A stretch of DNA of 64,000 bases from Bradyrhizobium sp. CCBAU 53338. Lineage in GTDB: Bacteria > Pseudomonadota > Alphaproteobacteria > Rhizobiales > Xanthobacteraceae. The position numbers and the translations under genes are program-made. Shown one piece after another: positions 13,649-37,500 of this stretch. The notes under the pieces were generated by a model, which was not told where the DNA came from, made no database searches, and was given only the letters and a program-made list of their open reading frames with translations. Each line of letters starts with the position of its first letter. Position 1 is the first letter of the stretch. The stretch is from contig NZ_CP030048.1 of NCBI RefSeq assembly GCF_015291665.1, positions 2,728,001-2,792,000 on the forward strand, in the 5' to 3' direction.

Positions 13649-14203
13649 TCAGGCGCGGGCGGCGGCGCGCCGGCGGCTGGTGACGACGAGCCTGAACACG
13701 AGGTATTGCACGGCAAAGGCGAGAGCCTTGGCGCCGCCCGCAACCGCGGAGATGTAGAAAGCCCACAGCTTCAGATCGCCGGTGGCGGCGACAGCGATCG
13801 TGCCGGCGCCGAGGGCGAACATCAGCGCGGCCCAGGCGTAGCCCGCAGCGGTGACATATTCGGGTGCGGTCTCGACCACGATCGGCGGCATGTAGCGCAG
13901 CATCCAGCCCCGCTTGAGCATGATCGCGCCGATCGCGAAATGCGCGATCGCAGGCTTGGCCAGCATGAAGCGAGGATCATTGGTCAGCAGCGTGATTGTA
14001 CCGAGGACGACGACGAGCGCGAGGCTCGCATAGGTCATGTAGCCGAGTTCGCGTCCCTTGACGCGCGCGTAGATCACTTGCGCGATCGCGCCGGCTATTG
14101 CGACGGAGGTCGCCAGGATGACGTTGTCGGTGACCAGATAGATCACCAGGAAGACGATAGCCGACAGGAAGTCGGAGGCGAGGCGGGCGAATACGTCCTT
14201 CAT
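13649..14203 (-). CDS. YciB/IspZ-family inner membrane protein
   Basis: A 184-residue protein with about five or six transmembrane helices, beginning MKDVFARLASDFLSAIVFLV and continuing with TDNVILATSVAIAGAIAQVI and YARVKGRELGYMTYASLALV, the look of the YciB/septation protein A family. The ATG at 14203 is 13 bp after the stop of the upstream membrane gene and has AGGA nearby, so the two form one unit. YciB proteins affect envelope and septum formation in Enterobacteria; the role here is inferred only. The unit lies downstream of operators A and B. Confidence 0.75.
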   Translation of the reverse strand: MKDVFARLASDFLSAIVFLVIYLVTDNVILATSVAIAGAIAQVIYARVKGRELGYMTYASLALVVVLGTITLLTNDPRFMLAKPAIAHFAIGAIMLKRGWMLRYMPPIVVETAPEYVTAAGYAWAALMFALGAGTIAVAATGDLKLWAFYISAVAGGAKALAFAVQYLVFRLVVTSRRRAAARA

Positions 14204-14216
14204 TGTCGGTCCTGTC

Positions 14217-14792
14217 TCACTTGGCTTCGGACAGCGCGCCGGAAGGCGCACCATACTTGATCTGGCGATATTCGGGATACCATTTGGTGAAATAGATCGC
14301 ACTGTTGCGTGCGGCGAAAGCGACCGCGAGGCCCAGCCAGACCGGCAGGCCCGGGAAGTAGAGCAGCACAATGTTGGCGGCCATCATCAGCAGGGCGGCC
14401 ACGGTCCATGCGCCGGTGATGATGTAGTTGGCGGTGAGGAAGCCGGGCATTGCCGCGGTCTCGGCCGGAACGGCCTCGATCGCATATTGCAGCGTGAAAG
14501 GGCGGCGCGCGAGCATCGAGCCGAGCGAGATGACGAAGATGCCGATATCGACCGAGAGCTTGACGCCGAGCGTGCTGAGCACGGGGCCGCGGAGCGCGAG
14601 GTAGAGGCCGATGCCAGCGAACAGGATCGCCGAGCCGGCAGCCAGGGTCTTGATCGAGCGGCCCCGGGCCACGTCGATCGCGATCGTGGCGAGGCAGATC
14701 GCGGAGGCCGTGAACACGCTGACCGTGGCCGAGGTCATGAACATCAGGAGGGTGTAGACGCCGTAGGGGGCAAGGATCAGGAAGATCGTCAT
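14217..14792 (-). CDS. Polytopic membrane protein of unknown function
   Basis: A 191-residue protein with about six hydrophobic helices, starting MTIFLILAPYGVYTLLMFMT. It ends in a polar tail (YFTKWYPEYRQIKYGAPSGA). GAGG lies about 6 nt before the ATG. It resembles its downstream partner in size and topology, and both may be distant relatives of the YciB type, but this is a guess. Operator A (14812-14830) begins 20 bp upstream of its start codon, so it is likely repressed by the TetR protein encoded at 16898. Confidence 0.75.
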   Translation of the reverse strand: MTIFLILAPYGVYTLLMFMTSATVSVFTASAICLATIAIDVARGRSIKTLAAGSAILFAGIGLYLALRGPVLSTLGVKLSVDIGIFVISLGSMLARRPFTLQYAIEAVPAETAAMPGFLTANYIITGAWTVAALLMMAANIVLLYFPGLPVWLGLAVAFAARNSAIYFTKWYPEYRQIKYGAPSGALSEAK

Positions 14793-14811: not shown

Positions 14812-14830
14812 ATCTTTACGATGTCAAGAT
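14812..14830. promoter_or_regulatory. Operator A (TetR-type), before the membrane-protein pair
   Basis: ATCTTTACGATGTCAAGAT is an imperfect palindrome with 8-bp arms and a 3-bp centre. It shares the ATCTTTAC-N3-GT half-site pattern with sites B, C and D. Confidence 0.7.
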
Positions 14831-14863
14831 TGGTAGTTCAGGCCAAGGAGCCGGTCAAGCAAA

Positions 14864-14882
14864 ATCTTTACAGTGTCAAAAT
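14864..14882. promoter_or_regulatory. Operator B (TetR-type), overlapping the MAPEG gene stop
   Basis: ATCTTTACAGTGTCAAAAT is centred 52 bp from operator A. The TAA stop of the MAPEG gene (14868-14870) lies inside it, so the operator is partly coding. Confidence 0.7.
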
Positions 14883-15350
14883 GACGTGAATGACTTCTAG
14901 AAATTGAATGGTCGCAATGGCTTGGTCGGTCAATTCATCGGCAAATGCCGCCCAGGGCAGGCGCGACAGGATGGTGAGGGCGCAGGAGATCAACAGGCCG
15001 ATGGTCAGGAAGATGCCGCCGGCGCGGCAGATCATGAATCGGAGCGAGCCCGGCCTCGCGTACATGCCGAGTGGATGCAGCAGGCGCGACAGCACAAGTG
15101 CGCCCATCAGCATGTGAATGCGCAGTGGTGATGCGCCGGACATTTCGAGCAGGGCGATCATCAGCGCGATGATCGGGACGTACTCCATGAAATTACCATG
15201 GGCCCGGATCGCGCTGCGCAGGCCATCATTGCCGCCGTGATTGAACGCGGCGCCGCTGCTCCGTCGCAGCCGGATGACCTGCAACGCGAGCGCAGCGTAG
15301 ATCAGCGCGAGGATCGCGAGGTAGTTCGCCGTGATGGTGGGGACGTGCAT
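14868..15350 (-). CDS. MAPEG-family membrane protein
   Basis: A 160-residue membrane protein with four helices. Family features are the first helix (ITANYLAILALIYAALALQV), the conserved RAHGNFMEYVPIIALMIALL segment with its Arg-x-x-Gly-Asn-x-x-Glu, and SRLLHPLGMYARPGSLRFM. MAPEG proteins are glutathione-linked membrane enzymes acting on hydrophobic substrates. The ATG at 15350 has GGGAGA about 6 nt upstream. It follows the oxygenase gene by 44 bp, so both are probably cotranscribed. The C-terminus runs slightly past the usual family end and its stop falls within operator B. Confidence 0.85.
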   Translation of the reverse strand: MHVPTITANYLAILALIYAALALQVIRLRRSSGAAFNHGGNDGLRSAIRAHGNFMEYVPIIALMIALLEMSGASPLRIHMLMGALVLSRLLHPLGMYARPGSLRFMICRAGGIFLTIGLLISCALTILSRLPWAAFADELTDQAIATIQFLEVIHVILTL

Positions 15351-15394
15351 GCGAAGTCTCCCTGATGACATTCGCAAAGGAGTGAGGGTGGGAG

Positions 15395-16792
15395 CTACTG
15401 TGCTCCCACCCAGTTGCCGTGAAAGCCGTCGGGCACGCGATGGCCGAGCTGCACCAGCGCGGCGGGGCCGGCCTCGATGTCGGTGGCATTGAACACGGCG
15501 AGGTCGCTGCGGTTCTCCCGCGCGCGCCAGACCACCGCCAGCAGCCAGCCGTCGCCTTCCGCCGCATCCTTCGATCGCTCGACGAACACAGGCTCAGAGA
15601 TGGTGTCGCCCGCCGGCAGCAGATATTGGCCGAGGCGCTTGCCGGCGCCGTCGACATGGACGATGCCGGATAGTGCGCCGAACATCGGCAGACGCGGATT
15701 GGCACAGGCGTACCAGCCATGACGGCTCTTCAAGCCGGCGCGGCGATCGTCGATGCGCGGGAATTCGCCGGTGAGGTCGTCGAGATAGGTCTGCTGGAAG
15801 CGGTCGGTATTCCCGGAGAGATCGAAGGTCCAGCGGCAGTGGCGGGCGCGCGATTTCTCCGGATCCGTCGGCCGGCCGTCGGGATGAGGAAACAGCGGCG
15901 CTTCTTCGAACTGCATGACGTCGGCGACAATGCGGCCGCCATTCTCCCACGCATTCATGATGTGGAAGACGTAGCAGGCTTCGCCGCGGAACCAGACGAT
16001 ATCTTCCGCCGTGCCGCTGCGTTTCATCACGCCGACATAGGCGCCTTTCTCCGGTTCCCAGGCATAGGGCGGCTTGCTGCTCATCGCGCGCTCCATGCTG
16101 CCGGTCAGGGGCAGGATCGGAAACAGCACGTGATTTTCGGTGACAATGAAGTCGTGCACCATGCTGGCATAGGGCGTCTCGAAACGCTCGAAGCGTGTGA
16201 CCTTGCCGCCCGCATCGATCGATCCGTAGGAGAGGGCAGGCGTCAGCGGTCCCGCCGCGTTGTATCCGAAGAACACCAGTTCGCCCGTAACGGGATCGAC
16301 CTTCGGATGCGCGGTGAAGGGCCCGGCAACGCCGCCCTGATAATTGTCGTAGCCGCGCGTTGCCAGCGTGCCCGGCTCGATCTCGGTCGGCAGATGTCCT
16401 TCTTCAAGGGCGAGCAGCTTGCCGGCATGGAAGACGATGTTGGTGTTGGCGACGCCGCCGTCGGTCAGGTTTTGCGGCGCACCCGGGAGCTTGCGGCCGA
16501 AGCCGCCGAACAGCGCACGACCGGCATCATGCTCGGCGAGCCATTTCGGCGTGCGGACCCAGCGGTTGCGGTAACTGGCGCGCCCCTCTTCGAGGTGGAA
16601 GGCGTGGAGCATGCCGTCGCCGACGAACCAGTGCGCGCCTGGCGAGTCGAACTGCGGATTGGGGCCGTTGCGGTAGAGCGTGCCGTTCAGTTCGCGCGGC
16701 AATTCGCCGACGACCTTGAGGAACGGCGCATCCGCCTCGAATGGAATCGGCGCGATGTTGTTGCGGCGCTCGGCGGTCGCATCCTGATGCAC
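15395..16792 (-). CDS. Carotenoid/stilbene-cleaving oxygenase (RPE65/CCO family)
   Basis: A 465-residue non-heme iron oxygenase of the carotenoid cleavage / lignostilbene dioxygenase family. The four iron-ligand histidines are visible at about 162 (FTAHPKVDP), 213 (SMVHDFIVT), 277 (CYVFHIMNAWE) and 458 (PDGFHGNWV). The N-terminus carries the family pattern GELPRELNGTLYRNGPNPQF. It cleaves a double bond in a carotenoid, apocarotenoid or phenolic stilbene; the substrate cannot be decided. The start is GTG at 16792 with AGGAGG about 8 nt upstream. Operator C begins 15 bp upstream of the start and abuts the Shine-Dalgarno, so the TetR protein likely represses it. Confidence 0.92.
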   Translation of the reverse strand: MHQDATAERRNNIAPIPFEADAPFLKVVGELPRELNGTLYRNGPNPQFDSPGAHWFVGDGMLHAFHLEEGRASYRNRWVRTPKWLAEHDAGRALFGGFGRKLPGAPQNLTDGGVANTNIVFHAGKLLALEEGHLPTEIEPGTLATRGYDNYQGGVAGPFTAHPKVDPVTGELVFFGYNAAGPLTPALSYGSIDAGGKVTRFERFETPYASMVHDFIVTENHVLFPILPLTGSMERAMSSKPPYAWEPEKGAYVGVMKRSGTAEDIVWFRGEACYVFHIMNAWENGGRIVADVMQFEEAPLFPHPDGRPTDPEKSRARHCRWTFDLSGNTDRFQQTYLDDLTGEFPRIDDRRAGLKSRHGWYACANPRLPMFGALSGIVHVDGAGKRLGQYLLPAGDTISEPVFVERSKDAAEGDGWLLAVVWRARENRSDLAVFNATDIEAGPAALVQLGHRVPDGFHGNWVGAQ

Positions 16793-16806
16793 GGCGTATC
16801 CCTCCT

Positions 16807-16825
16807 ATCTTTACATCGTAAAGAT
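16807..16825. promoter_or_regulatory. Operator C (TetR-type), perfect palindrome
   Basis: ATCTTTACATCGTAAAGAT has perfect 8-bp arms around a 3-bp centre. It directly abuts the AGGAGG of the oxygenase gene. It is the most symmetric of the four sites. Confidence 0.8.
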
Positions 16826-16859
16826 GCCATAGAACCAAGCGCGGCTTCCGTCAAGTGAA

Positions 16860-16878
16860 ATCTTTACACTGTCAATAT
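16860..16878. promoter_or_regulatory. Operator D (TetR-type), before the regulator gene
   Basis: ATCTTTACACTGTCAATAT is centred 53 bp from operator C and ends 19 bp before the TetR start codon, consistent with autoregulation. Confidence 0.75.
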
Positions 16879-16897
16879 TGCGTCATATAGCTTGTAA

Positions 16898-17614
16898 ATG
16901 GCCAAGAGAGACACCACCGGCGAGACGCCGCGCCGCCCCAAAAAGACATCGCCGGCATCTCGTCCGGCGCGTCGCCCTGCGAGCGCGAAGACCGAGACGC
17001 CCTATCACCACGGCGCCTTGCGCGAGGCGTTGCTTCTAGCCGCCGAACGGGTGCTGGAGCGCGACGGGCTCGCCGGTCTGACGTTGCGCGCGGTGGCGCG
17101 AGAGGCGGGCGTCTCGCATGCGGCGCCAACCCATCATTTCGGTGATCTCACCGGACTCGTCAGCGAACTCGCGGCGATCGGCTTCCGCCAGTTCAACGCG
17201 GCGATGGCCTCATCCTGCGACGCGGCCACCTCGCCGCTGGAGCGGGCGCTGGCGCGGCCCAAGGCCTATGTCGCGTATGCCCAGGCCCATCCCGGCATGT
17301 ACGGGTTGATGTTCCGTACCGAGCGGCTCGACTATTCCAGGCCCTCGCTGCACGAGGCCGCTGAATCCTCGTTTGCCGGACTTGCTAATGCCATCGGCGC
17401 GATGCGGCAGGAGCCGATCAGAGGCAACGCGCTGACGATCGAGCAGGGCGCCGCGATCGCGCGGGCCTGGTCGATGGTGCACGGCTTCACCATGCTGCTG
17501 CTCGACGGGCGGCTCGAGGATATTCTGGAGCGGCTGCCCGATGGAACGACGGCCGAGCAGCTTCTGGAGGCGATCCTGAAGTCGACGGTGGCCGGACGGC
17601 TGCCAAGCACCTGA
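16898..17614 (+). CDS. TetR-family regulator with WHG-type C-terminal domain
   Basis: A 238-residue repressor. A basic N-terminal arm of about 33 residues precedes the DNA-binding domain (YHHGALREALLLAAERVLER), with the helix-turn-helix at about 61-85 (LTLRAVAREAGVSHAAPTHH then F). The C-terminal ligand domain contains HPGMYGLMFRTERLD and AWSMVHGF, as in WHG-domain TetR proteins. It is divergent from the oxygenase operon. Sites C and D in the shared 105-bp gap, and A and B near the next unit, fit its expected operator type. The inducer is unknown; a substrate or product of the oxygenase is a reasonable guess. Confidence 0.92.
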   Translation: MAKRDTTGETPRRPKKTSPASRPARRPASAKTETPYHHGALREALLLAAERVLERDGLAGLTLRAVAREAGVSHAAPTHHFGDLTGLVSELAAIGFRQFNAAMASSCDAATSPLERALARPKAYVAYAQAHPGMYGLMFRTERLDYSRPSLHEAAESSFAGLANAIGAMRQEPIRGNALTIEQGAAIARAWSMVHGFTMLLLDGRLEDILERLPDGTTAEQLLEAILKSTVAGRLPST

Positions 17615-18448: not shown

Positions 18449-19015
18449 ATGCCAGCCATCGCTCCCCGCAAATCCTACCGTGTCGGCCGTTCCAAGACCG
18501 GACTTGGCCTCTTCGCCACCATGCCGATCAAGAAGGGCACAAGGATCATCCGTTACTTCGGGCCGATCCTGGACTGCCGCATTCCAGCGCAGGACGAGAT
18601 CGAGAACAAATATCTGTTCGAGCTCAACAACCGCTGGACGATCGACGGCTCGGTGCGCAAGAACCTCGCGCGCTACATCAACCACTCCTGCCGTCCCAAC
18701 GCGGAATCCGACGTCCGTCCGCGCGAGCGCAAGGTGTTCATCCGGGCCATCAAGAACATCGAACCCGGCGACGAGATCAATTACGACTACGGCACCGACT
18801 ATTTCAAAGCCTATTTGAAGCCGATCGGCTGCAAGTGCCCCTCCTGCGAAAACAAGCGCAAGAAACAGCGCGCCGAAGCCCGTGTCGAACGGGCCAAGGT
18901 GAAGGCGCGCGCGGAGCGCAAGGCGGAGAAGGCAGCCGCCAGGGGCGCAAAGAGCGTCAAGAAGAAGCTCAACGGCCATGCCGTTGCCACGCCGAAGGGC
19001 CGCGCGCGGGCGTAG
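18449..19015 (+). CDS. SET-domain lysine methyltransferase
   Basis: A 188-residue protein. The SET core spans about 8-118: RSKTGLGLFATMPIKKG at the start, the SAM-site motif RYINHSCRPNAE with NHSC at 78-81, and EINYDYG at 109-115 with the catalytic-type Tyr. A post-SET-like CKCPSC (Cys128, 130, 133) is present and could bind zinc with Cys81. A Lys/Ala/Arg-rich tail follows to the end. SET enzymes methylate protein lysines; bacterial targets are poorly known. The neighbouring Lys-rich protein and its own tail are obvious candidate substrates, by inference only. Confidence 0.88.
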   Translation: MPAIAPRKSYRVGRSKTGLGLFATMPIKKGTRIIRYFGPILDCRIPAQDEIENKYLFELNNRWTIDGSVRKNLARYINHSCRPNAESDVRPRERKVFIRAIKNIEPGDEINYDYGTDYFKAYLKPIGCKCPSCENKRKKQRAEARVERAKVKARAERKAEKAAARGAKSVKKKLNGHAVATPKGRARA

Positions 19016-22575: not shown

Positions 22576-25500
22576 TTGAAGTACACCGACACATTGCCGT
22601 CGATCGGCTCGGATCACCAATCCCTTCATTTCGGCCCCGTTTCGGCTGCCGATCATCGGCCTACAAGCAGCGTCGAAATTCCCGACGCGCATCTTTTGTT
22701 CTCCGGCAACTTTGAGCGGATCGGAGCCGACCTGATCCTGTCGGACGAGCTTCATCGCGTCATCGTGCCAAACTACTTTCGCGATCACGTGCGCCCCTTG
22801 CTCGTGTCCCCGGAAGGAGCGCCGCTCGATCCCGGCGTCGTCGATACCCTGACAGGTCACACCCAGTATGCACAGGCCGGCGCGCCAGCTGCCGGCGGCA
22901 AGGTCGTGGGCCACGTCGTCAAGATGACCGGCAGCGCAAGCATCGTCCGCAATGGCGTGGCGATCGTCGCCAATGTCGGTGATGCCGTCTACCAGAGCGA
23001 TGTGGTCCAGACGGGCAGCGGGTCGACCCTGGGTCTCGTGCTCGACGATGGCACGACGTTCAATCTGTCCGCCAGTTCGCGGTTCCTGCTGAACGAATTG
23101 ACCTATGATGCCAGCAGCACTTCCAACAGCTCGCTGATGACCCTGGTTCAGGGCGCCGCCAGCTTCGTGGCGGGGCAGGTTGCAAAGACCGGCGATATGC
23201 GGGTGGCGACACCCACCGCCACGATCGGCATTCGCGGTACGGCTGTCATTCTCGACGTGTCCGCGACCGATGGAAAGGTGTCCGTCTCGGTCGTCGATCA
23301 GCAGGACGGTCAGGTGCATGCCGTTCAGGTTTTCAACACGGCCGGCGTCCTGATCGGTACCGTCACGAGCAACGGATCGACGCTGACGTTGACGCCGACC
23401 GCAAACTTCGACGTGATTGCTCAGCAGACCAACAAGACGACAGATCAGGTCGCTCAGGAATTCAGTGCCTTCCAGCAAGTGCTGAGCACATATGATTCCG
23501 GCAAGCAGCTGTTTCCAAATCTTCCCCAGCACACCGAGAACAAGGATCAGAACAACAACAACCCGAGCCCGAATAGCACCACGAAGTTCGCCGGCAGCCC
23601 GCCGCTCCAGCCGCCCGGTACCGAATATCATCCGCCGGCCGGGACAACTACCGTTCAACCCTCGAGCGCGACGACGTCGACGGTTGTCGTCACGGTCAAT
23701 CCGTCTGACGCTGGCACGGACTTGGCGACCACCAAGTCCGTCACGGTCGATCCGATCATCATCCCGGTCAAACTGTCGTCGATACCTTTTGTCGTCACTC
23801 CGCCGAGCGTAGCGGCGATCACCTCCGGTGCGGGAGATCACATCGGCCCGGTCATGAGTGCCAATGGTGACGTGGTCTACGATCCTGACGGCGCCATCTA
23901 TTTCTTCAGCCGCGAAACCGGCACGACTACCACCATCGCTTCGCCGTCGAGCGGCTGGAGCTATGGCTCGCCGACGATCAGTTCCGATGGGCGGTACATC
24001 GTCTATCAGGGATCCGATGGTAGTGGGAGTTTCGTATTCGTCTACGGCACTGATTCTTCCGATCCCGCGCATTACCATGTCCAGACTGAGCTGGCTCCAG
24101 GCAGCGCTCCCACCGTCAGCGGTGACGGCAGCGCGATCGTGGTCGAGCAAGGTGGCGGCAATATCGCGATCTACGATTTGCAGGGCAACCTGAAGGCCGT
24201 GATCACGCCGGCCGCTGCCGGAAGTTCGGGGGCGCTTTGGAAGCCCGCAATCAGTGCCGACGGCCACATTGTCGTGTTCTGGAACTCGGACGCAGCAGTT
24301 TCCGGAGGCGCAGGCCAGCTCGACGTGCTCGATCTCTCGACGGGGGGAATTACCCAGATTGGGAACACCGCCATCGGTGCGGGGACTGCGCCGCCGACCG
24401 TCAGCGCCGACGGCCACCTGATCGCCTACCAGAGCACTGACGGGACCGGCCATTCCGAAATCTATCTCTATGATCTGAACGCCGGCACGGTCGTATTCCA
24501 CACCTCGAACGCCTCAGGCAGCAGTTACAGTCCGGTGCTGAGCCCTGATGGACATTTCATCGTCTTTACCAGCGACGCGCAGCTGGCGTCGGCCGATCAC
24601 AACAGTTTTGCCGACATCTATATCGTCGATGTCACGAACCCGGCTGCACCGGTGTACAAGCTGGTTTCCGATGGTGTGAATGCGGCTTCCAATGGAGGCG
24701 CGGCCATCAGCGCCGGGGGCCAGTACGTCGCTTTTGGAAACAGCAGCAACATCTTCTTTGCCGACCCAACCTCGGGCCTCAGCGCGATCATTCTGGAGAC
24801 CGTCAAATCGCCGGCGATGCTGACCGCGAAGGGGGCGATCTCGATCACCGGCGACTACACGGGCGTGGATATCGGCGTGACCGATCAATTTGGCAGCTCG
24901 ACGCCAAATTTCACCGCGAGCTTCGATTCCGCCGGGCACATCAATTGGACCTTCAGCGAGTTGAAGAGCGACTTCGCCTTCTTGTCTTATGGCCAGGATG
25001 CGACGCAAGAGTTCATTGTCACGCTGTCCGCTGACAATGGCACCCTGACGATACCAGTTTTCATCACGGTGCATGACGGCGTACAGCCGACCATCCAGAC
25101 TGCGGATGCCGCGCCGGTCGCTGCGCCCGTCACGCTTGCGCAGGGTCAGCAGGACAATTCGTATACGATCACGCCGGCCGCGCTGCTGACGGGGGTCGCC
25201 GATATCGATGGACCGTCGCTGACCATCACGTCGCTGGCGGTCAGGAGCGGAGGCGGCGGCCTCGTCCAGAACAGTGATCTGACATGGACCTATACGCCGG
25301 ATCCCGGATTCAGCGGTCAGGTCGTTTTCGACTACACGGTGTCGGATTCCATCAAGTCGGCCGCTTCGATCGCAAGCCTCAACATTGCGCTGCCGCTTGC
25401 GATTACGTCGATCGCTCCGGACGGCGGCGTAGTTGGGGACTTTGTCACCAACGGTACGTCACTGACCGTCTCGGGGACCAACGGCACGCTATCGGCCGGC

Positions 25501-28500
25501 GAGAAGATTCAGATCAGCAGCGATGGTGGCATCACGTGGAGCGATGCCGTCCAGACGTCGGGATCGACATGGAGCCTGACCGATCCGGTCGTGCACATCT
25601 CGAACTTTGCGTATCAAGCGCGCGTCGTCGATTCCGCCAACAACGCCGTCAACTCGGTGGTTCAGGCGATCACGATCGACACGGCTGCGCCGGTGGTCGG
25701 AATCACGAGTGGCAGCGGCCTGACCAATCATGCCAACCAGATCGTCGCAGGAACAGTGGATCTGGCTGATGCGGGCACCACCGTCATTGTGTTCGATAAT
25801 GGCAATTCCGTCGCCGGCGCCGTTGTCGGGGCGGATGGACACTGGAGCACGGTCGTTTCCCTGACCGAGGGGGACAATAGCCTGGTTGCCCAGGATTCCG
25901 ACGTTGCAGGCAATGTCGGTGTCAGCAACACCATTGTCATTTCGCTCGACACGACGGCACCGAGCGCGGTCGCGACTGTCACGGCGCTGAGCCCGGACAG
26001 TGGCAGCTCGTCGACCGACTTCAATACCAACGTTGCCTCACAAACGATCAGCGGGACCTACACCGGTGCGCTCGGCTCCGGCGAGGTGATCCAGGTCAGC
26101 GCCGATGGCGGCGCGACTTGGGTGGCGGCGACGGCATCGAGTGGCAATTGGTCGGCCTCCGGGGTCACGTTGTCCCCCGGCGCCGGCCTGCTGTCGGTTC
26201 GCACGATCGACCTGGCAGGCAACACCACGTCCGGCACGGGCCACGCCTACACGCTGGATCAGAACGCGCCGACCGCGGTTGCGACCGTCACCGCGCTAAG
26301 CTCCGACACCGGCTCATCGAGCAGTGATTTCGTCACCAGCAGCAGCTCGCAGACAGTAAGCGGAAGCTTTACAGGCACGCTGAGCTTCGGCGAGCAGATT
26401 CAGGTCAGCGCCGATGGCGGTGCCACCTGGGTGACTGCAAGCACGAGCGGCGCGAGCTGGTCGGCGTCCGGCGTGACGCTCTCGACGGGCACGGGCGCGC
26501 TGTCGGTGCGCACGATCGACTTGGCCGGCAACATCACGTCGGGAGCGGGTCATAGCTATACGCTGGATCAGACTGCTCCTTCGGGCGGTGCGCCGGATCT
26601 GATTGCGACGTCGGATTCAGGCGTTTCCAGTACCGACAATATCACCAACGTACTGGCGCCGACGTTCTCAGTCTCGCTCGGATCTGGCGTGGCAGTGGGT
26701 GATATCGTTGAGCTGCGGCTGAATGGAGCGTCGTTCTCTCATCCGCTGGTGCATGCGGTCAGCTTGGCCGACCTCTCTGCCCAGAGCATCAGTTTCTCGG
26801 TTAATCCTGGCGATCTTGGGATCGACGGCGCCAAGCAGATTTCGGCGCTGTTCACGGATGCTGCGGGCAACAGCACGACCAGTTCGGTGCTTGGCGTCAC
26901 GCTGGATACCTCGGCCCCTGTGGTGACAATCGGCAACGCGGGCGGCAACACGAACCAGGTCGCGCAGACCATTTCGGGGACTGTGGACCTCGCGGACGCA
27001 GGTGCGACCGTCAGCGTGCTGGATGGAGGTGCGCCGGTGGCTACCGCCACCGTTCAGGCCGACGGCAGCTGGAGTACGAGCGTTACGCTCCAGAGCGGCA
27101 ACAACGATCTGACAGCTCAGGTCACCGATACCGCGGGCAATCAAGGTGTCAGCAATGTCGTCACCTATACGCTGAACACGAACGCGCCCATTGGCGGCAC
27201 CCCGGACCTGATAGCCGCATCGGATTCCGGATCGTCCAGTACGGACAACATCACCAATGTAACGGCGCCTATTTTTACGGTTGCGCTAGGTACTAATGTA
27301 GTGGTCGGCGACACGGTCGAGCTGCTGCTTGGTGGCTCGTCTCTGGCAACTCCGGTGCTGCATACCGTCACCTCAGCCGATGTCACTGCGCACAGCGTCA
27401 GCCTGACGGTCACGGCGGGCGATCTCGGGGGCGACGGCAATAAGCAAATCTCGGCGCAGCTGAGCGATTCATTCGGAAACAGCTCTACCACAGCGGCGCT
27501 GATCGTCACCGTGGATACGACGGTGCCATCGGCGGTTGCGACGGTGACGGCGTTGGGCGCCGATAGCGGCAGTTCCTCGATCGATTTCGTCACCAACGTG
27601 GCGTCGCAGACGGTCAGCGGCACCTACACCGGTTCGCTGGGATCCGGCGAGACGATCCAGGTCAGTGCCGACGGCGGCACCACCTGGGTCACGGCGATCG
27701 CGAACACATCAAACAACACCTGGTCGGCAGCGGGAGTGACCCTGTCGGCGGCCGGCATAACGCTGTCGGTGCGGACCATTGATCCGGCCGGCAACGTCAC
27801 GGCGGGCACGAGCCATAGCTATACGCTCGACACCACGGCGCCGTCGGCGGTTGCGACAGTGACGGCCCTGAGCTCCGATAGCGGCAGTTCGTCGAGCGAC
27901 TTCGTCACCAACGTGGCGTCGCAGACGGTGAGTGGGACCTACATCGGTACGCTTGGCTCCGGCGAAACGATCCGGGTCAGCGCCGACGGCGGCGCCACCT
28001 GGGTTACAGCGGCCGCCAATACATCGAACCATACCTGGTCGGCATCGGGGGTAGCGCTATCGCCCAGCGGTACGACACTGTCAGTGCAGACGATCGATAC
28101 GGCCGGGAATGCGACGGCGGGGACAGGGCACAGCTACACGCTCGACACATCCGCACCCACCGCAGTCGCGACGGTGACGGCGCTGAACTCCGATAGCGGC
28201 AGCTCGTCGAGCGACTTCATCACCGGCGTGGCGTCGCAGACGGTGAGTGGCACCTACAGCGGTACGCTGGGGTCCGGCGAAACGATCCAGGTCAGCGCCG
28301 ATGGCGGTACCGCCTGGGTCACAGCGACAGAAAACATATCGACCAACACCTGGTCGGCGCCGGGCGTGACCCTGTTGGCGGCCGGCACCACGCTGTCGGT
28401 GCGGACCATCGATCTGGCCGGCAATGTCGCGGCGGGCACGAGCCACAGCTATACGCTCGACACGACGGCGCCGACGGCCGTTGCGACGGTGACGACGCTG

Positions 28501-31500
28501 AGTTCCGATAGCGGTAGTTCGTCGAGCGACTTCGTCACCAGCGTGGCGTCGCAGACGGTGAGCGGCACCTATAGCGGCACGCTGGGATCTGGCGAGACGG
28601 TCCAGATTAGCGCCGACGGTGGCGCCACTTGGGTCACGGCCACCGCGAACACGTCAAACAACACCTGGTCGGCGGCGGGGGTGACCCTGTTGGCAGCCGG
28701 CACTACGCTGTCGGTGAGAACCATTGATCTGGCAGGCAATTCCACGGCGGGCACGGGGCACAGCTATACGCTGGACACGACGGCGCCGGCGGCCGTTGCG
28801 ACGGTGACGGCGTTAAGCTCTGATACCGGTTCATCGAGCAGCGACTTCGTCACCAACGTGGCGTCACAAACGGTGAGCGGCACCTACAGCGGCACGCTGG
28901 GATCCGGCGAGACGATCCGGGTCAGTGCCGACGGCGGCACCACCTGGGTCACGGCGACCGTCAATACGTCGAACCACACCTGGTCGGCGTCGGCGGTGAC
29001 GCTGTCGCCCAGCGGCACGACACTGTCGGTGCAGACGATTGACACAGCCGGGAATGCGACGACGGGGACACCCCATAGCTATACACTGGATACGACGGCG
29101 CCGACGGCCGTTGCAACGGTGACGGCGCTGAGCTCCGATAGTGGCAGTTTGTCGAGTGACTTCATCACCAATGTGGCGTCGCAGACGGTGAGTGGTACCT
29201 ACATCGGTACGCTGGGAGCCGGCGAGACAATCCAGGTCAGCGCAGACGGCGGCACCACCTGGGTCACGGCGACGGTCAATACGTCGAACCATACCTGGTC
29301 GGCATCTGGCGTGACGCTGTCGCCCAGCGGCACGACACTGTCGGTGCAGACGATTGATGCGGCCGGGAATGCGACGGCGGGGGTAGGTCACAGCTACACG
29401 CTCGACTCAACCGCACCTACAGCAGTTGCAACGGTAACCGCGCTCAGTTCCGATACTGGCTCATCGAACAGCGACTTCATCACCGATGTGGCATCGCAGA
29501 CGGTGAGCGGGACCTACACCGGTACACTGGGATCCGGCGAGACGATCCAGGTCAGCGCGGACGGCGGCGCCACCTGGGTCGCCGCGATAGCAAATACATC
29601 GAACCATACCTGGTCGGCGTCGGGCGTGACGCTGTCGGCCAGTGGCACGACGCTGTCGGTGCAGACGATCGACACGGCGGGGAATGTGACGGCTGGGACC
29701 GGCCACAGCTATACACTGGACACGACGGCGCCGACGGCAGTTGCGACTGTGACGGCGTTGAGCTCCGATAGCGGCAGCTCGTCGAGCGATTTCATCACCA
29801 GCGCGGCGTCGCAGACCGTCAGCGGGACCTATAGCGGCACATTCGGAACCGGCGAGACGATCCAGGTCAGCGCCGATGGCGGCACCACCTGGGTCGCCGC
29901 AACGGTCAATACGTCGAACCACACGTGGTCTGCATCTGGCGTGACGCTGTCGCCCAGCGGCACGACACTGTCGGTGCAGACGATCGATACGGCCGGGAAT
30001 GCGACGGCGGGGACAGGCCACAGCTACACGCTCGACACATCCGCACCGACGGCGGTTGCGACGGTGACGGCCCTGAGCTCCGATACCGGTACATCGAACA
30101 GCGACTTCGTCACCAGCGTGGCGTCGCAGACGGTCAGTGGGACCTATACCGGTACGCTGGGATCCGGCGAGACGATCCGCGTCAGCGCAGACGGCGGCAC
30201 CACCTGGGTCACGGCGACGGCAAATGCGTCGAACCATACGTGGTCGGCATCAGGCGTGACGCTGTTGGCTAGCGGCACTTCATTATCGGTGCAGACGATT
30301 GACCCGGCAGGGAATGTGACGTCGGGGACACCCCATAGCTATACACTGGACACGACGGCGCCGACGGCTGCTGCGACGGTGACGGCCCTGAGCTCCGATA
30401 GCGGCAATTCGTCGAGCGACTTCATCACCAATGTGGCGTTGCAGACGGTGAGTGGCACCTATACCGGTACGCTGGGAACCGGCGAGACAATCCAGGTCAG
30501 CGCGGACGGCGGCACCACCTGGGTCACGGCGATCGCAAATACATCGAACCATACCTGGTCGGCGTCGGGCGTGACGCTGTCGGCCAGCGGCACGACACTG
30601 TCGGTGCAGACGATCGATACGGCCGGGAATGCGACGGCGGGGACAGGGCACAGCTATACACTGGACACGACGGCGCCGACGGCAGTTGCGGCGGTGACGG
30701 CGCTGAGCTCCGACAGTGGCAGTTCGTCGAGCGACTTCATCACCAGCGTGGCGTCGCAGACTGTGAGTGGCACCTACACCGGTACGCTGGGATCCGGTGA
30801 AGCGATCCAGGTCAGCGCCGATGGCGGCACAACCTGGGTGACGGCGACCGTCAATACATCGAACCATACCTGGTCGCTCTCGGGTGTGACGCTGTCGCCC
30901 GGCGGCACGACACTGTCGGTGCAGACGATTGATGCGGCCGGAAACATCACGGCGGGGACCGGCCACAGCTATTCGCTCGACACATCAGCACCCACGGCAG
31001 TTGCGACGGTAACGGCGCTGAGCGCCGATACCGGTACATCGAACAGCGACTTCGTCACCAGCGTGGCGTCACAGACGGTGAGTGGCGCTTACACCGGTAC
31101 GCTAGGGTCCGGCGAGACGATCCAGGTCAGCGCAGACGGCGGCACAACCTGGGTGACGGCGACTGCAAACACGTCGGCCAACACCTGGTCGGCAGCAGGG
31201 GTGACGCTGTTGGCGGGGGGCACCACGCTATCGGTGCGGACCATTGATCTGGCCGGCAACATCACGGCGGGTACGGGGCATAGCTATACGTTGGATAGTT
31301 CGGCGCCGCCTGAAGCCGTCGCAATTACCTCCATTACCGGAGCATCGTCGCCTGCGAGCACGTCGATTATCGTTGCCGGCACCAACGGTGCGCTCCGGCC
31401 CGGCGACAAGGTGCAGATCAGCAGCAGCGATAATGCGACGTGGACGGATGTGGTGGCCAGCGGGTTGAATCGGTGGAGTTTCGCCGACAACGTCGCCCGC

Positions 31501-34500
31501 AGTTCGAGCTTCACCTACTTCATTCGGGTCGTGGATTCGGCCGGCAACGCCGGCGCGACGGCGACCCAGTCGGTGGTGGTTGCTAACAACGGTGCAACCG
31601 TGGCCATGGCCGCGGCCGGAGGTGTCGCCGAGTTCACCGGGACCGGCGGAAATCTCCAGGTCGGGGCGGCTGGTGTGTCCGCCACCATCAACGCCATTTC
31701 GGTCGCGAGCGGCGGATCCGCCACGATCAACGGGAGCGGCAATGTCATAACGTCTGCTGGCGATGCCATTGATCTTTACGCAACGGGAGCACCTCAGGGA
31801 AGCCCGGAAAACCTGCTGGTCAATCCAACAGGAACGATCACGGGCGCTGCCTCGGGCATCTCTGTGGCCCAGAATGCAGCGGGTTCGATCATGGTCACGA
31901 CCTCCGGGCCGGTGACCGGCCTCGCGGGCCGAGGCATTCTGGCGCAGCAAACCGCAACGGGCACCGGCGCGATTACGATTAATGGATCGGGCACCGTAAT
32001 CGGCACAGGCGCAGCCTTCAGTGGCATCGCAGCGCAGAACCTGAACTCATCGAACAATGCCGACATAACGGTCAGCCAAACCGGAAATATCATTGGTGGA
32101 CACGACGGGATCCACGTCCAAACCAACGGCAACGGCAATATCAGCGTAACCACCGCGCCTAATCCGCTCGAGGCAACCGCGCAAATCGTCGGGTCCGCGC
32201 TCTACGGCATCGAGGCACAATCCAAGGGCACGGGCAATATCCTGATCACGACGGCTGCCGGCACGGTCATTACATCAGGCGGCGTCGGGATCAACGCGTA
32301 CAACGAAGCGACCTCTTTGCCCAAGGTCGGCAATGTGATCGCAAGCTCGATTTCAGTCAATGCGAGCGGCGTGATCAACTCAGGCGTAGCTCTGACCGGA
32401 CAAGGTGGCCGTGCAGCCGGTATCCTCGCCGGGTACAAAGGCGGCACGACCAATACGGTCAATGCCAGCGTGTACGGCAATGTCGTCGTCAACAACTCTG
32501 CGACCATCAACGCGGCGGGTGGTGACGGTATCCGCGCCTACAACTTCGGCCCAGGCAACGTCTCCATCAGCAATTCCGGGATGATCACTGCCAAGGATGT
32601 CTATGGCATCGTCGGTTCGAGCAACGGCACGGGCAACGTCTCGGTCACGACGACCGCCAGTTCCAGTATCACCTCGGGGTCGCATGGCATCCTTGCGATC
32701 AACCAGGCCACTTCGATTTTGCAGACCTTGGGCTCGACGGTCACCGTGATAGCCGACGGTACCATCAACTCGGGTGTACACCTTTCAGCCGGAGGCGCCT
32801 CGCCAGCCGGCATTTCGGCCGGATATTACGGCAGCAACGGCACGTCAAATCCGAACATCAACGGCTCGGTGCTTGTCGATAACGCGGCCAATATCACGGC
32901 GAGAGCGGGATACGGCATCATTGCCTTCAATCTCGGCTACGGAAACATCGCCGTCATCAACAGGGCCGACACGTCCGTGAGCGGCGGGCAATTCGGCATC
33001 AACGTCGGTTCGTCCGTCAACGGCACCGCGTCGCCGTCCGATGTCTCGGTGACCATCGAAGCCAATTCGACGCCGACGATTGCTGCAGTGACCGCGAGCT
33101 CGCTCATGGGCCTCGCCGCAATCAACGCCAACAACTCGAGCGGCGGCAACATCACGATCGTGACCGGTGCCAATGATCAGTTTATCTCCGGTGGCTTCGG
33201 CATCAACGCCAATTCGTCGGCGGGCAGCGTCGCAGTCGGAAAGCAGATATCAGTCACGACATCGACGGGGTTGATCGACTCCGGTTACAATGTCTTTTCG
33301 GGCGGTGGTACGCCTGCGGCCATTTCGGCCGGCTACGGTGTCCTCTCGCCGGCCAGCATTCACGGTAACGTCGTTCTGGACAATTCGGCGACTGTCACCG
33401 CGGCTTCGGGTTCCGGAATCAATCTCTACAACAACGGCAACGGCAGTATCAGCGCAACGCTGCGGCCGACGTCGTCGATCAACGCAGCGCAGGGAGCTGG
33501 CGTTACAGCATTCTCGGCCGCCGGCGGCAACATCGGGATCGACAACCAGGGCGCCATCACCGCGGCGGCCATCGGCATTTCCGTCAACAACGGATCCAGC
33601 GCTTCGGTCAACGGGTTGATCTCGATCTCCAATTCCGGAACGGTCTATGCGCCCGGCGTACCGTACATGCCCGTCGTGACAATCGGCAATGCGAACAGCA
33701 CTCAGACCGCAACGGTTTCCAACAGCGCTACCAAGTCCATCGCCTCAACTCTCTTTGCCCGCACGACCGGCAACGTCGCCATTTCGTTCTTCACCGGCAA
33801 TGGGTCGGTCACCAACAATGGCACGATCACCGGCAACGTCAATTTCAGCGGGAGTGCCAGCGGCAGCTTCAGCAACGCGTCCGGGGCAACCTGGAATATC
33901 AACGGCTGGAATTCCTTTGGCAGCGGTACAAGCACGATCGGCAATTCCGGTCTTATCAGCTTGTCTGGCCTTGCCGCCTTGTCCGGCCCAAGCGCGATCA
34001 CCCTGACGAATACGGGCAGCATATCTGTCAGTTCCAATGCCTCGGCGCAGATCTTTGCGAACGTCAGCGGGGCAGGCGCGATCGCCTTGGGAGATCATGC
34101 GGCTCTCGAGCTTGGATCCTTTGTTGCGGCCTCACAGGCGATCAATTTGGCCGGCAGGGACCTTCTGACATTCGATAACCCGGCCTCGGTGGGTACCAAT
34201 CTGCCGCTCACCTTTAGTACCAGCGGCAACGGCAACATTGGCACCGTCATAACCCTGCAAGGCAGTGGCATCACGGCTGCGAATGTAAGTGGCTCCACGC
34301 TGACCGTGAGCGGCGCTCAGAACCAAACGTTCCAGGTGTCCGGCACCGGGCTATCCGGCAACACGTTTGACGTTCTCTCGTCGAACCGCATCGTGCTGGT
34401 GCCAAGCAGCGCGCAGACCGTCTCAGGTATCTTTACATCGCAGCCGGCAGTAGCGCCCGCAAACTTCTACATCCTCGACAATTACCACATCAACAGCAGC

Positions 34501-37500
34501 ACGGGCGCTGGATTCAACCTGTCGACGTCTGACACTGCGAATACGTATACGATCGTCGCCAACGCCAGTTCCGACATTGTGATCAACGGTGCGTTCCCCG
34601 GTCTCCGGGTCGCGACGCAGGGCGCCAGCGGCGCGATCATCAATGCTGCGAATATAGCCGGCCCGATCGCTGGCACTGGCCCCATCACCGGTGTCGTCGT
34701 GGATACCACGCAGAATGCAAACACCGGCAACGGCTCCGCCGACATCGTCAATTACGCAAATGTCAGCGGCACCACCAACGGCATCACCGCCAATACGGTC
34801 AACGGCAATATCAGTATTGTCAACATGGCCACCACGGTGGCCGGAACTAGCTCGTACGGAATATTGGGCGTGTCCAGCGGCACGGGCAACGTCACCATCA
34901 CCTCGTCGGGCGGCACGATCACCGGCGGCTTTAACGGCATCCGCGCCGCAGCTCTGCAGGAGTTCACTCCCGGGACGGGCAACGTCATCATCTACAACTC
35001 GTCCAGCATCACGAGTGGCGCGAACTCAAACAATGCAGGCAGCGGCGCGGCCGGTCTTCGCGCGCGCATTCTCAATAACAACAACACGGTGCCGAACGCC
35101 GCGATCGCAGGCGACGTCACGATCGAGAATCGCGCCAGCATCACGGCGCTGGCCGGCGCGGGCATTTTTGCCGACAACTACGGTTCGGGAAATACGTCAG
35201 TTACGTTTGCGGGCGGCCAGAACACGATCACGGCGGTCAATGGCGGAGCGACGGGCGTCGGTAGTGGCCTTACTCAGTACGGCATCTTCGCCTTCACCTA
35301 TGGTATTGGAAGCTCGCTGGTGAATTCCGGCTATGGCACCACCATTACATCGGGCAGCACTGGCATCAATGCCGGCAACCAGGCCACAACGATTGCTTCG
35401 GGCAGCGGCAGCACCGTCTCGGTCTACAGCCAAGGATTCATTTCATCCGGAACGAACGTCAACAACGGCGGCAGCGCGCAATCCGCGATCCAGGCAGGCT
35501 ATAATCCCGGCGGCAGCGGCGCCTTCAGTTCTGCGGTGTATGGCGACGTGATCGTCAATGTCGCGAGTGACGGCAATCCCTTCGGCAACCCCAATCCGAC
35601 TCTGCTCGCTGCGGCCGGGCCCGGCATCCTTGCGTACGACTACGGCGTCGGCAACATCACGGTCAGCGTCGGCTCGGGTGTGTCGATCAATGCACTGAAC
35701 GCTGCATCGTCGTCATCGGGTGGTAATGCTCCCTATGGCATCAGCGCCACCAATCGCGGGCCGGGCAGTATTTCCGTCCTGACGTTGAACGGGTCCTCCA
35801 TCAATTCCGGCAGCACCGGCATCAACGCCGTCAACGACGCAAATCCGACGGTGAGCACGCCGGATCTGGTCAATCTCTTCGCCGCCAATGCCGCTACCGG
35901 CAATCCTGCGGTCGTCGCGGTGACGGCGGCCGGCACGATCACTGCAGGCGGACAGCAAACAAACAGCGGCGGTACACCGTCCGGCATCGCCGCCGGCTTC
36001 TTTGGTGGAGGAGGGCACTCCAACCAGTATGTCAGCGGCAACGTCTTCATCAACAACGCCGCGGTGGTCAACGCTGCTGGCTTTGGTCTCCAGGGGTACA
36101 ATTTCGGCTACGGCAGCATCACGATCAACGTCGCCTCGGGCGCCAACATCACGGCGGGCTCTAACGGCATCTACGCTCACGCCGACGGCGGCTTCACCGA
36201 TCCGGTCACCGCCAGCGCGCTCACGCGTGATATCTCGATCAACGTATCGGCAAACACGACGATCACCGCCGGCTCTGCGGCTTTCAACAAGGCCTACGGC
36301 ATTCTCGCCTTCAGCGTCAACGCGAGCAGCATCTCGATCGTGACTTCGGCGGGGGACACGATCGATTCGCAACAGGGCGGCTCCGGCATCAACGCCGTCA
36401 ACGAGGCCACCAGCATTGCCCAGTCGTTCAACAGTTCGGTGGTCGTGACAAACGCGGCGACAATCCACTCCGGCATCGGCCTCACCGGATTCAACGGCCA
36501 GCCGGCCGGTATCATCGCGGGCTATATCGGCCAAACGACGGACCCGAGCCTGAACAATCCGCCGAACCCTGCGAACTACAACGTCTATGGCGAGGTCGAC
36601 GTCAACAACTTCGGCAATATCACGTCGAATGCAGGCGACGGCATCAGGGCTTACAATTATGGCGTCGGCGACGTCTATGTGAACAATTTTGCCGGAACCA
36701 TCGTCGCCATGGGCGGCGCCAGCCCGCCGAACGGAACGGGTGTCGGCATTCTCGCGCAGAATTTCGGACCGGGCAGCATTCATCTGACGACCTCGGCCAC
36801 GACCTCGATTACGTCAGGCAGTTCCGGCATCGCTGCGGTCAACAAGGCGACCACTGCGGACCCGCTCCATCCCACCGTGGTCGTCCCCGCGACATCCGAG
36901 ATCGCCGTTTATGCCTCCGGAATCATCAAATCCGGCACGACGCTGACGGGGTCCGGCGACGTGCCTGCGGGCATCTTGGCCGGCTACAACCCGAACAATT
37001 TGAACAACCCCCAGGTGGGCGTCGGCGTCCACGGCAACGTTTTCGTCGACAGCCATGCCACGATCCAGGCACCGTTCGGCACGGATGGTATTCGCGGGGT
37101 CAACTACGGCGGTCCGGATAGCAGCGGCGCTGGCGGCGATATCAATATTTTCATCGAAACCGACTCGACTGTGACGGGCGGGCGCTATGGCGTCGCCGCC
37201 CTGAGTTACGGCGTTGCCGTCGACCCACTGAGCCCTGACCCACAGAACCCGAACTATGTTCCCAATGGCGGAGACGTCAGTGTCACGAACAACGGCGCGG
37301 TGTTTGGTGGCGGGCTCGCGGCGATCAACGCGACGACCAACGGCGCCGGCGTGGCGACAATCGACAACACCGGTTTCGTCAGTGGTGTGGTGATAGGTTA
37401 CAATGCGACTTTCACCAATGAGGCCAGCGGGCGCTGGCTCTTTGACGGCACCAGCAGCTTCACCGGCGCAAGCAGCTTCACTAACGCCGGAACCATCGAG

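What the first reader, a model, noticed from the sequence alone, without database searches (positions are those of the whole stretch)
14812..16878. Four copies of one 19-bp operator arranged as two equally spaced pairs
ATCTTTAC-N3-GT(A/C)AA(G/A/T)AT occurs at 14812, 14864, 16807 and 16860. Centre-to-centre distances are 52 bp (A-B) and 53 bp (C-D), about five helical turns. One pair lies between the divergent TetR and oxygenase genes, the other before the membrane-protein/YciB pair. This defines a local regulon and suggests cooperative binding of two dimers on the same DNA face or a small loop.
Basis: partly seen in the sequence, partly recalled or inferred. Interest (0 to 1): 0.7.

Follow-up and report, generated by a model that had tools for sequence, protein, structure and literature searches.

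The report
Two repressor-bracketed promoters of one TetR
A soil bacterium of the Bradyrhizobium group carries two copies of one genetic switch in which two docking sites for a TetR-type repressor bracket a promoter, and comparison with related bacteria suggests which protein binds there and why the sites are spaced as they are.

Summary
The four 19-bp palindromes are real and are the only exact copies in the 8.28-Mb genome. They form two conserved modules: an upstream operator (O1) and a downstream operator (O3) bracket a sigma-70-type promoter, CTTGAC-N17-CTAnnn. One promoter precedes the oxygenase, the other two membrane-protein genes. O1 of the first module also holds the -35 box of a predicted leaderless tetR promoter. 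Across 205 pairs in 117 of 119 loci, spacing is 52-56 bp except one pair (42); most variation lies between the -10 box and O3. I read ~53 bp as 21 + 32: distant relatives carry the same operator in arrays with those two modes, a middle operator holding the -35 box; here only a TTGAC half-site stands in that slot. Recognition-helix residue His79 predicts the majority half-site base 3 in 100 of 100 loci and is the only perfect predictor among 196 columns, though the tree-corrected test is too small to be significant. A local TetR autorepressor is well supported; binding is untested, and looping or same-face cooperativity is not shown. Recurrent neighbours of the subfamily: ABA4-like proteins and RPE65-type oxygenases.

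The parts
16898..17614 (+). TetR-family regulator (TetR_N + TetR_C_33), 238 aa; recognition helix 76-81 with His79
   Evidence: Pfam; AlphaFold2 model mean pLDDT 91, helix 76-81; numbering; covariation
16860..16878 (.). Operator O1 of module 1 (site D); also holds the -35 box of the tetR promoter
16807..16825 (.). Operator O3 of module 1 (site C), over the predicted start point of the oxygenase transcript
   Evidence: start point inferred
16850..16855 (-). -35 box CTTGAC of the oxygenase promoter; its TTGAC sits at the register (+21 from O1) of a middle operator O2 seen in relatives, as a half-site only
16827..16832 (-). -10 box CTATGG of the oxygenase promoter, 17 nt from the -35
16863..16868 (+). 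-35 box TTTACA of the tetR promoter, inside O1
16886..16891 (+). -10 box TATAGC of the tetR promoter; 6 nt before the ATG, so tetR mRNA is predicted leaderless
   Evidence: (6 nt in 82 and 7 nt in 14 of 117 loci)
14864..14882 (.). Operator O1 of module 2 (site B); contains the MAPEG stop codon
14812..14830 (.). Operator O3 of module 2 (site A)
14854..14859 (-). -35 box CTTGAC of the membrane-protein promoter
14831..14836 (-). -10 box CTACCA of the membrane-protein promoter, 17 nt from the -35
15395..16792 (-). RPE65-family (carotenoid/lignostilbene cleavage) oxygenase, 465 aa, GTG start
   Evidence: Pfam RPE65 5.6e-135; below NCBIfam equivalog cut-offs; aligned to dioxygenase 6xm6 with four histidine positions shared (their iron-binding role is recalled)
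14868..15377 (-). MAPEG family membrane protein (TTG start as listed; true start may be further in)
   Evidence: Pfam 2.1e-18; near-intact in 21 of 80 Bradyrhizobium-type loci, shorter matches in 47, none in 12
14217..14792 (-). Membrane protein (by reading) with weak VC0807-family similarity
   Evidence: no Pfam match; NCBIfam VC0807 4.9e-5, below cut-off
13649..14203 (-). Divergent YciB/IspA (septation protein A) paralogue; start placed by me at an inner ATG (ORF as listed runs 13649-14371)
   Evidence: Pfam IspA 2.1e-14; a better-scoring IspA-family gene lies elsewhere in the genome, C1:369973

Best explanation
The TetR at 16898-17614 is a local autorepressor. Two copies of one promoter module, O1 - CTTGAC - N17 - CTAnnn - O3, drive the oxygenase unit and the VC0807-like/YciB-like unit. 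A TetR dimer on O3 sits just after the -10 box, over the predicted start point. A dimer on O1 sits immediately upstream of the -35 box and, in module 1, directly on the -35 box of tetR. Together they exclude RNA polymerase from all three promoters until a ligand releases TetR. The 52-53 bp spacing is 21 bp (O1 to the -35 register, where relatives have a middle operator O2) plus about 32 bp (-35, N17, -10, then O3). Shown by computation: sites, conservation, promoter-like elements between them, composition of the spacing, TetR-operator covariation. Inferred: binding, repression, start points, ligand release. Unknown: the ligand, possibly an apocarotenoid-type or stilbene-type compound (guess from the neighbouring gene families).
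For: Pairs in 117 of 119 loci, 205 pairs; -35-like box at a fixed offset in 203 of 205 (4 nt after O1 in 201, 5 nt in 2), N17 in 191 of 203. Spacer letters vary while operators, CTTGAC and TA are conserved. Spacing variance 0.70 against 0.65 for the -10 to O3 gap, correlation 0.95, 202 pairs. tetR -35 position inside O1 reads TTTACA in 102 and TTGACA in 11 of 117, with the first ATG 6-7 nt after the N17 position in 96 of 117. TetR residue 79 against majority half-site base 3: His with C in 88 of 88 loci (282 of 356 half-sites), Asn/Arg with A/G in 12 of 12 (47 of 48 half-sites); sole perfect predictor of 196 columns. Distant homologues: 46 of 55 loci with two or more sites near tetR; gaps cluster at 19-22 (17 of 59) and 30-36 bp (30 of 59), with TTGACA at the -35 position of the upstream operator in 22 of 22 gaps of 32-33 bp. 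Where the oxygenase is absent, one pair stands between tetR and the VC0807-like or YciB-like genes in 17 of 19 loci.
Against: No binding or expression data. -10 boxes are weak (mostly only TA conserved), the script could choose N15-N19, and in the distant 32-33-bp arrays the -10 position often lacks a clear box. The covariation rests on 5-6 changes on the tree, 3 forced by well-supported branches; the sign test has 3 pairs and gives p = 0.25. In His loci the outer half-sites are often T at base 3 (53 of 356). A 61%-identical TetR paralogue with the same His has no such operator beside it. L113 keeps both operators at 42 bp without a clear -10 box between them. 3 of 55 distant loci have no site, and 9 fewer than two.
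Confidence: 0.8

Rival explanations
1. Spacing of five helical turns is selected for cooperative binding of two TetR dimers on one DNA face, or for a 52-bp loop.
For: 52-54 bp is near 5.0-5.1 turns; the single exception in 80 Bradyrhizobium-type first pairs is 42 bp, four turns; a second mode near 21 bp, two turns, in distant loci.
Against: Spacing spans 52-56 and differs between the two pairs in 87 of 88 loci; 24-27, 35-36 and 39 bp also occur; nearly all variance sits between -10 and O3; a circular test was no sharper at 10.5 bp (R 0.60) than at 11 (0.62) or 12 (0.58). A 52-bp loop without a tetramerising repressor is physically costly (general knowledge).
Confidence: 0.15
2. A cooperative three-site array: O1 holds a dimer that helps a second dimer onto the TTGAC half-site at +21, which is also the -35 box, so TetR and sigma factor compete for the same bases.
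For: O1-to-TTGAC offset fixed in 201 of 203 pairs though promoter geometry does not demand it; relatives carry full or nearly full middle operators at 20-22 bp (for example L172, L173, L194, L195).
Against: The right half of a middle operator is not conserved at that register in the 202 distinct pairs tested; the left-half signal is explained by the -35 box alone.
Confidence: 0.25
3. The sites belong to another regulator (for instance the 61%-identical paralogue at C1:1902813), and the adjacent TetR is a bystander.
For: The paralogue has almost the same recognition helix (SHAAPRHHF).
Against: The sites lie beside relatives of this tetR across the class and co-vary with its own residue; O1 covers its predicted -35 box.
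Confidence: 0.05

Closest known systems
AcuR of Rhodobacter sphaeroides (acuR-acuI-dddL), PMC3017554 (passages seen)
   Same: TetR-family autorepressor, leaderless mRNA starting at the AUG, inverted-repeat operator overlapping the promoter
   Different: One operator TAATAGAC-N6-GTCTATTA over one promoter of one operon; here two modules of two operators each, with a divergent tetR and a different operator
Rv3160c/Rv3161c of Mycobacterium tuberculosis, PMC7810876 (passages seen)
   Same: TetR-like repressor of an adjacent oxygenase gene through palindromes near the promoter
   Different: Nested palindromes at one promoter of a co-transcribed pair; different operator and regulator
TetR/tetO of Tn10 and Tn1721 (recalled; the leaderless Tn1721 tetR is mentioned in PMC3017554)
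   Same: Divergent tetR and target gene, tandem operators, autoregulation, leaderless tetR
   Different: Operators and target unrelated; no second module ahead of another transcription unit (recalled)
QacR and CprB dimer-of-dimers TetR regulators, PMC4150764 (passages seen)
   Same: Two dimers at one control region, cooperativity possible
   Different: Both dimers share one 22-28-bp site; here separate 19-bp palindromes 52-53 bp apart
3on2 (Rhodococcus) and 3cjd (Jannaschia), solved TetR-type proteins
   Same: Best matches by sequence and by fold
   Different: No operator or function stated in the titles seen

Membership tests
TetR-family repressor | TetR_N helix-turn-helix plus all-helical ligand domain | tested here: met
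   Pfam TetR_N 34.7 bits and TetR_C_33 52.3 bits, both over cut-off; all-helical model and TetR-type matches
TetR-family repressor | Palindromic operator in its own promoter region | tested here: met
   O1 covers the predicted tetR -35 box; that hexamer is TTTACA or TTGACA in 113 of 117 loci
TetR-family repressor | Binds the operator and is released by a ligand | not testable with these tools
   Only indirect: residue-base covariation
Housekeeping sigma-70-type promoter (Bradyrhizobium RpoD-like) | TTG-N(16-18)-TATA (PMC4842269, passages seen) | tested here: inconclusive
   TTG part and N16-18 fit (N17 in 191 of 203, N18 in 10, N16 in 2; L113 counted among them although its box falls inside O3); the -10 box usually keeps only TA
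Leaderless mRNA (tetR) | Transcript starts at the AUG | tested here: inconclusive
   First ATG 6-7 nt after the N17 position in 96 of 117 loci; no mapped start point
RPE65/carotenoid cleavage oxygenase | RPE65 domain and four iron-binding histidines | tested here: met
   Pfam 5.6e-135; four histidine positions aligned with 6xm6 (their role is recalled)
Lignostilbene dioxygenase equivalog | NCBIfam equivalog cut-off | tested here: not met
   414.4 bits against 800
YciB/IspA septation protein | Pfam and NCBIfam cut-offs | tested here: inconclusive
   Pfam met, 54.6 over 28.7 bits; NCBIfam equivalog not met, 61 against 180 bits; second, better match elsewhere in the genome
VC0807 family | NCBIfam cut-off | tested here: not met
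   23.1 against 65 bits

The most novel reading that the evidence does not exclude
This TetR is one member of an undescribed alphaproteobacterial regulator subfamily that senses a carotenoid- or isoprenoid-derived signal. It reads a three-slot operator array (O1 - O2/-35 - O3) in which the middle operator and the -35 box are the same bases. In the Bradyrhizobium lineage the array stands twice, around a gained or lost oxygenase cassette, and residue 79 sets which base the half-site carries.
Probability: 0.3. Interest if true: 0.65.

Novelty: new variant of a known kind. Interest (0 to 1): 0.5.

Why it matters
It would turn an anonymous TetR into a regulator with a defined operator, a candidate specificity residue and a predicted target set in Alphaproteobacteria (RPE65-type oxygenases; ABA4-like proteins). 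One residue swap with its matching base change would test the protein-DNA code, and the spacing rule shows how a repressor site and a -35 box can share bases. It also cautions against a common inference: operator spacing near whole helical turns need not mean looping.

Tried and rejected
Strict helical phasing: the circular test on 59 gaps gave R = 0.60 at 10.5 bp but 0.62 at 11 and 0.58 at 12, so it cannot discriminate (the spacings were copied by hand).

Kinship between the VC0807-like or YciB-like proteins and the ABA4-like or neighbouring membrane proteins: six profile comparisons gave no probability above 2% (a seventh, with MAPEG, used an out-of-frame query and is void). The 2-mismatch site elsewhere in the genome lies in an ORF. 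Beside the second RPE65 gene of the genome three weak matches (13, 13 and 14 of 16) and no TetR relative were seen in 9 kb. Beside the 61%-identical TetR paralogue no site of 13 or more was seen near its start. NCBIfam gave no name for the membrane proteins next to the ABA4-like genes.

An error of mine: the MAPEG query was out of frame (found through). MAPEG presence is therefore taken only. The numbering (82, from L036) equals residue 79 in the window protein. The output was cut, so a few of the 80 loci were not seen in that listing.

Papers: ten counted searches. The operator core letters gave 3 papers, judged unrelated from the listing; TetR with carotenoid oxygenase, operator and Bradyrhizobium gave 0; ABA4 with TetR and Alphaproteobacteria gave 1, judged unrelated from the listing. 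Passages were seen of PMC4842269, PMC3017554, PMC7810876 and PMC4150764; everything else only as listings. Most subscription papers are not in that library, so absence there is not proof.

Choice and dropping of rows: the 119-locus set is the window, the best 80 of 571 oxygenase loci and 38 family loci that I chose from the better TetR hits, leaving out L115 and L116 (paralogue and 2-mismatch places). The 55 distant loci (L163, L165-L218) are those fetched, not every hit; 8 of them are from the window's own family; L164 (same place as L133) was left out. One search used 100 loci with a site of 14 or more, only 9 of the 80 named loci among them, and L164 is in it as a duplicate; one search dropped 17 that I judged near copies and 4 further named loci, leaving 79. 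One search used 202 of 205 pairs (L113, and one pair each of L139 and L153 where the -35 search failed, are out).

Full report
Observation. The four sites are present at the stated coordinates. The start-to-start distances are 52 and 53 bp. In the window the pattern with up to 3 mismatches matches 10 times by strand, 8 of them from these four sites, against 0.31 expected. In the whole genome (two contigs, 8,283,608 bp) these are the only exact sites; 80 further strand-matches have 2-3 mismatches, and the reversed control pattern has 31 in all. The one place with 2 mismatches lies inside an ORF; the 79 with 3 were not followed.

Genes. TetR (TetR_N and TetR_C_33) on the plus strand; on the minus strand an RPE65-family oxygenase, a MAPEG protein, a protein with weak VC0807-family similarity, and a divergent YciB/IspA protein. 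A better-scoring yciB-type gene lies elsewhere, as does a second RPE65 gene. The oxygenase is below the NCBIfam equivalog cut-offs, so its substrate is open.

Conservation. In the best 80 of 571 oxygenase loci the first pair is present in 80 of 80, at 53 bp (70), 54 (8), 52 (1) and 42 (1). By the strict pattern the second pair is present in 64 of 80, at 52 (57), 53 (6) and 54 (1). With a slightly relaxed score, and with the window and 38 chosen family loci added, 205 pairs occur in 117 of 119 loci: 52 (80), 53 (83), 54 (33), 55 (7), 56 (1), 42 (1).

What lies between. In 203 of 205 pairs the script finds a CTTGAC-like box at a fixed distance after O1 (4 nt in 201, 5 nt in 2), then 17 nt in 191 of 203 (18 in 10, 16 in 2), then a box in which mainly TA is conserved; from that box to O3 are -1 to 3 nt, L113 apart. 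The 17 nt vary in letters while operators, CTTGAC and TA do not. The Bradyrhizobium start-site paper gives TTG-N(16-18)-TATA as the RpoD-like consensus (PMC4842269, passages seen). Spacing variance is 0.70, that of the gap from -10 to O3 0.65 (correlation 0.95), over 202 pairs. The scan for the -10 box allowed N15-N19 and took the best, which favours finding one. In the window the boxes are at 16850-16855 and 16827-16832, and at 14854-14859 and 14831-14836.

The tetR promoter. The -35 position inside O1 of module 1 reads TTTACA in 102 and TTGACA in 11 of 117 loci; 17 nt on lies TATAGC in 65 and TATAAC in 14. The first ATG follows that position by 6 nt in 82 and 7 nt in 14 of 117. tetR mRNA is therefore predicted leaderless, as shown for acuR and mentioned for the Tn1721 tetR (PMC3017554, passages). 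In Bradyrhizobium 320 gene start points lie within 10 nt upstream of start codons.

Cassette history. Of 52 loci put on a TetR tree, 33 have the oxygenase and 19 do not; the label changes at least 4 times, 3 forced by supported branches. In 17 of the 19 one pair stands between tetR and the VC0807-like or YciB-like genes; L153 has a pair but no such gene found, L154 neither. Loci with the oxygenase mostly carry two pairs; L127, L144 and L145 have the oxygenase and a YciB-like gene with one pair. Gain and loss cannot be told apart. The MAPEG gene is near-intact in 21 of 80 loci, gives a shorter match in 47 and none in 12. In 20 of the 21 its stop codon lies inside the operator.

Wider family. 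TetR relatives at E <= 1e-32 were found in 36 of 397 genomes of the order, and at 1e-28 in 33 of 385 of the class. In 55 distant loci (8 of them from the window's own family, the rest from others), 46 have two or more operator-like sites near the tetR start and 52 at least one; an ABA4-like gene is divergent in 32 and an oxygenase in 4; none shows VC0807-like/YciB genes at the threshold used. Pfam confirmed ABA4-like in 5 of 5 tested. The 56 loci of that script held 140 sites of score 13 or more in 204,960 bp against 14 after mononucleotide shuffling. Of 59 adjacent gaps, 17 are 19-22, 4 are 24-27, 30 are 30-36, 3 are 39-42 and 5 are 49-54 bp; all 22 gaps of 32-33 bp have TTGACA at the -35 position of the upstream operator, while the -10 position after it is often not box-like. 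Loci such as L172 have sites at 0, 21 and 52. So the 52-53 bp of the window equals O1 to O3 of such an array. At the +21 register only the left half-site remains (left-half match 5.9 and 6.0 of 8 for pairs 1 and 2; right half 1.7 and 2.3). That left-half signal is the -35 box itself, so a relic operator is inference.

Which protein binds. Residue 79 of the window TetR lies in the predicted recognition helix 76-81. In 100 loci His goes with C as the majority base at half-site position 3 (88 of 88; 282 of 356 half-sites, T in 53) and Asn or Arg with A or G (12 of 12; 47 of 48 half-sites). Of 196 columns tested it is the only perfect single-residue predictor; the next has Youden J 0.60. The scan pattern left that position free. 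With 79 loci the split is 67 and 12; both traits change 5 times; the 3 independent pairs on supported branches all agree, too few for significance (sign test p = 0.25). Against: a 61%-identical paralogue in the same genome has His there and no such site beside it.

Mechanism. Best reading: promoter exclusion by TetR dimers at O1 and O3 of each module and on the -35 box of tetR, released by an unknown ligand. Looping is not needed. Cooperative contact across 21 bp remains possible. Confidence 0.8 for the local autorepressor with promoter sandwich.

Known or new. The kind (a TetR autorepressor with operators in its promoters) is well known. The operator, the three-slot arrangement, the doubled module and the specificity residue did not turn up in the papers searched, a library without most subscription journals.

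Noticed in passing
window 14868-14882: The MAPEG reading frame ends inside the operator at 14864-14882, so the operator encodes its last residues and stop codon; 20 of 21 near-intact copies in relatives do the same.
   Followed up: partly
G000 C1:1902813-1903439 (L115): A 61%-identical TetR paralogue lacks the operator nearby; two GTTCTAAAANAGAAC palindromes (by eye) lie there just after CTTGAC boxes, ahead of that tetR and of a downstream gene.
   Followed up: no
L183 (G153): A second TetR-oxygenase pair in a same-genus genome has Asn in the recognition helix and ATA-type operators at 52 bp: the same layout with different letters.
   Followed up: partly
L180: Operator-like sites at successive distances of 133, 133 and 35 bp beside a tetR and an ABA4-like gene.
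   Followed up: no
L129, L133, L149, L150, L152: A distant oxygenase (37-40% identity) and a distant TetR (31-35%) sit a few kilobases downstream of the tetR-VC0807-YciB unit.
   Followed up: no
window 22576-40890: A 6104-aa ORF with many near-identical repeats and C-terminal repeats that look calcium-binding (by eye), probably a large surface or secreted protein.
   Followed up: no
window 18449-19015: A SET-domain-like ORF (name recalled, not searched) keeps its place beside tetR in most loci listed.
   Followed up: no
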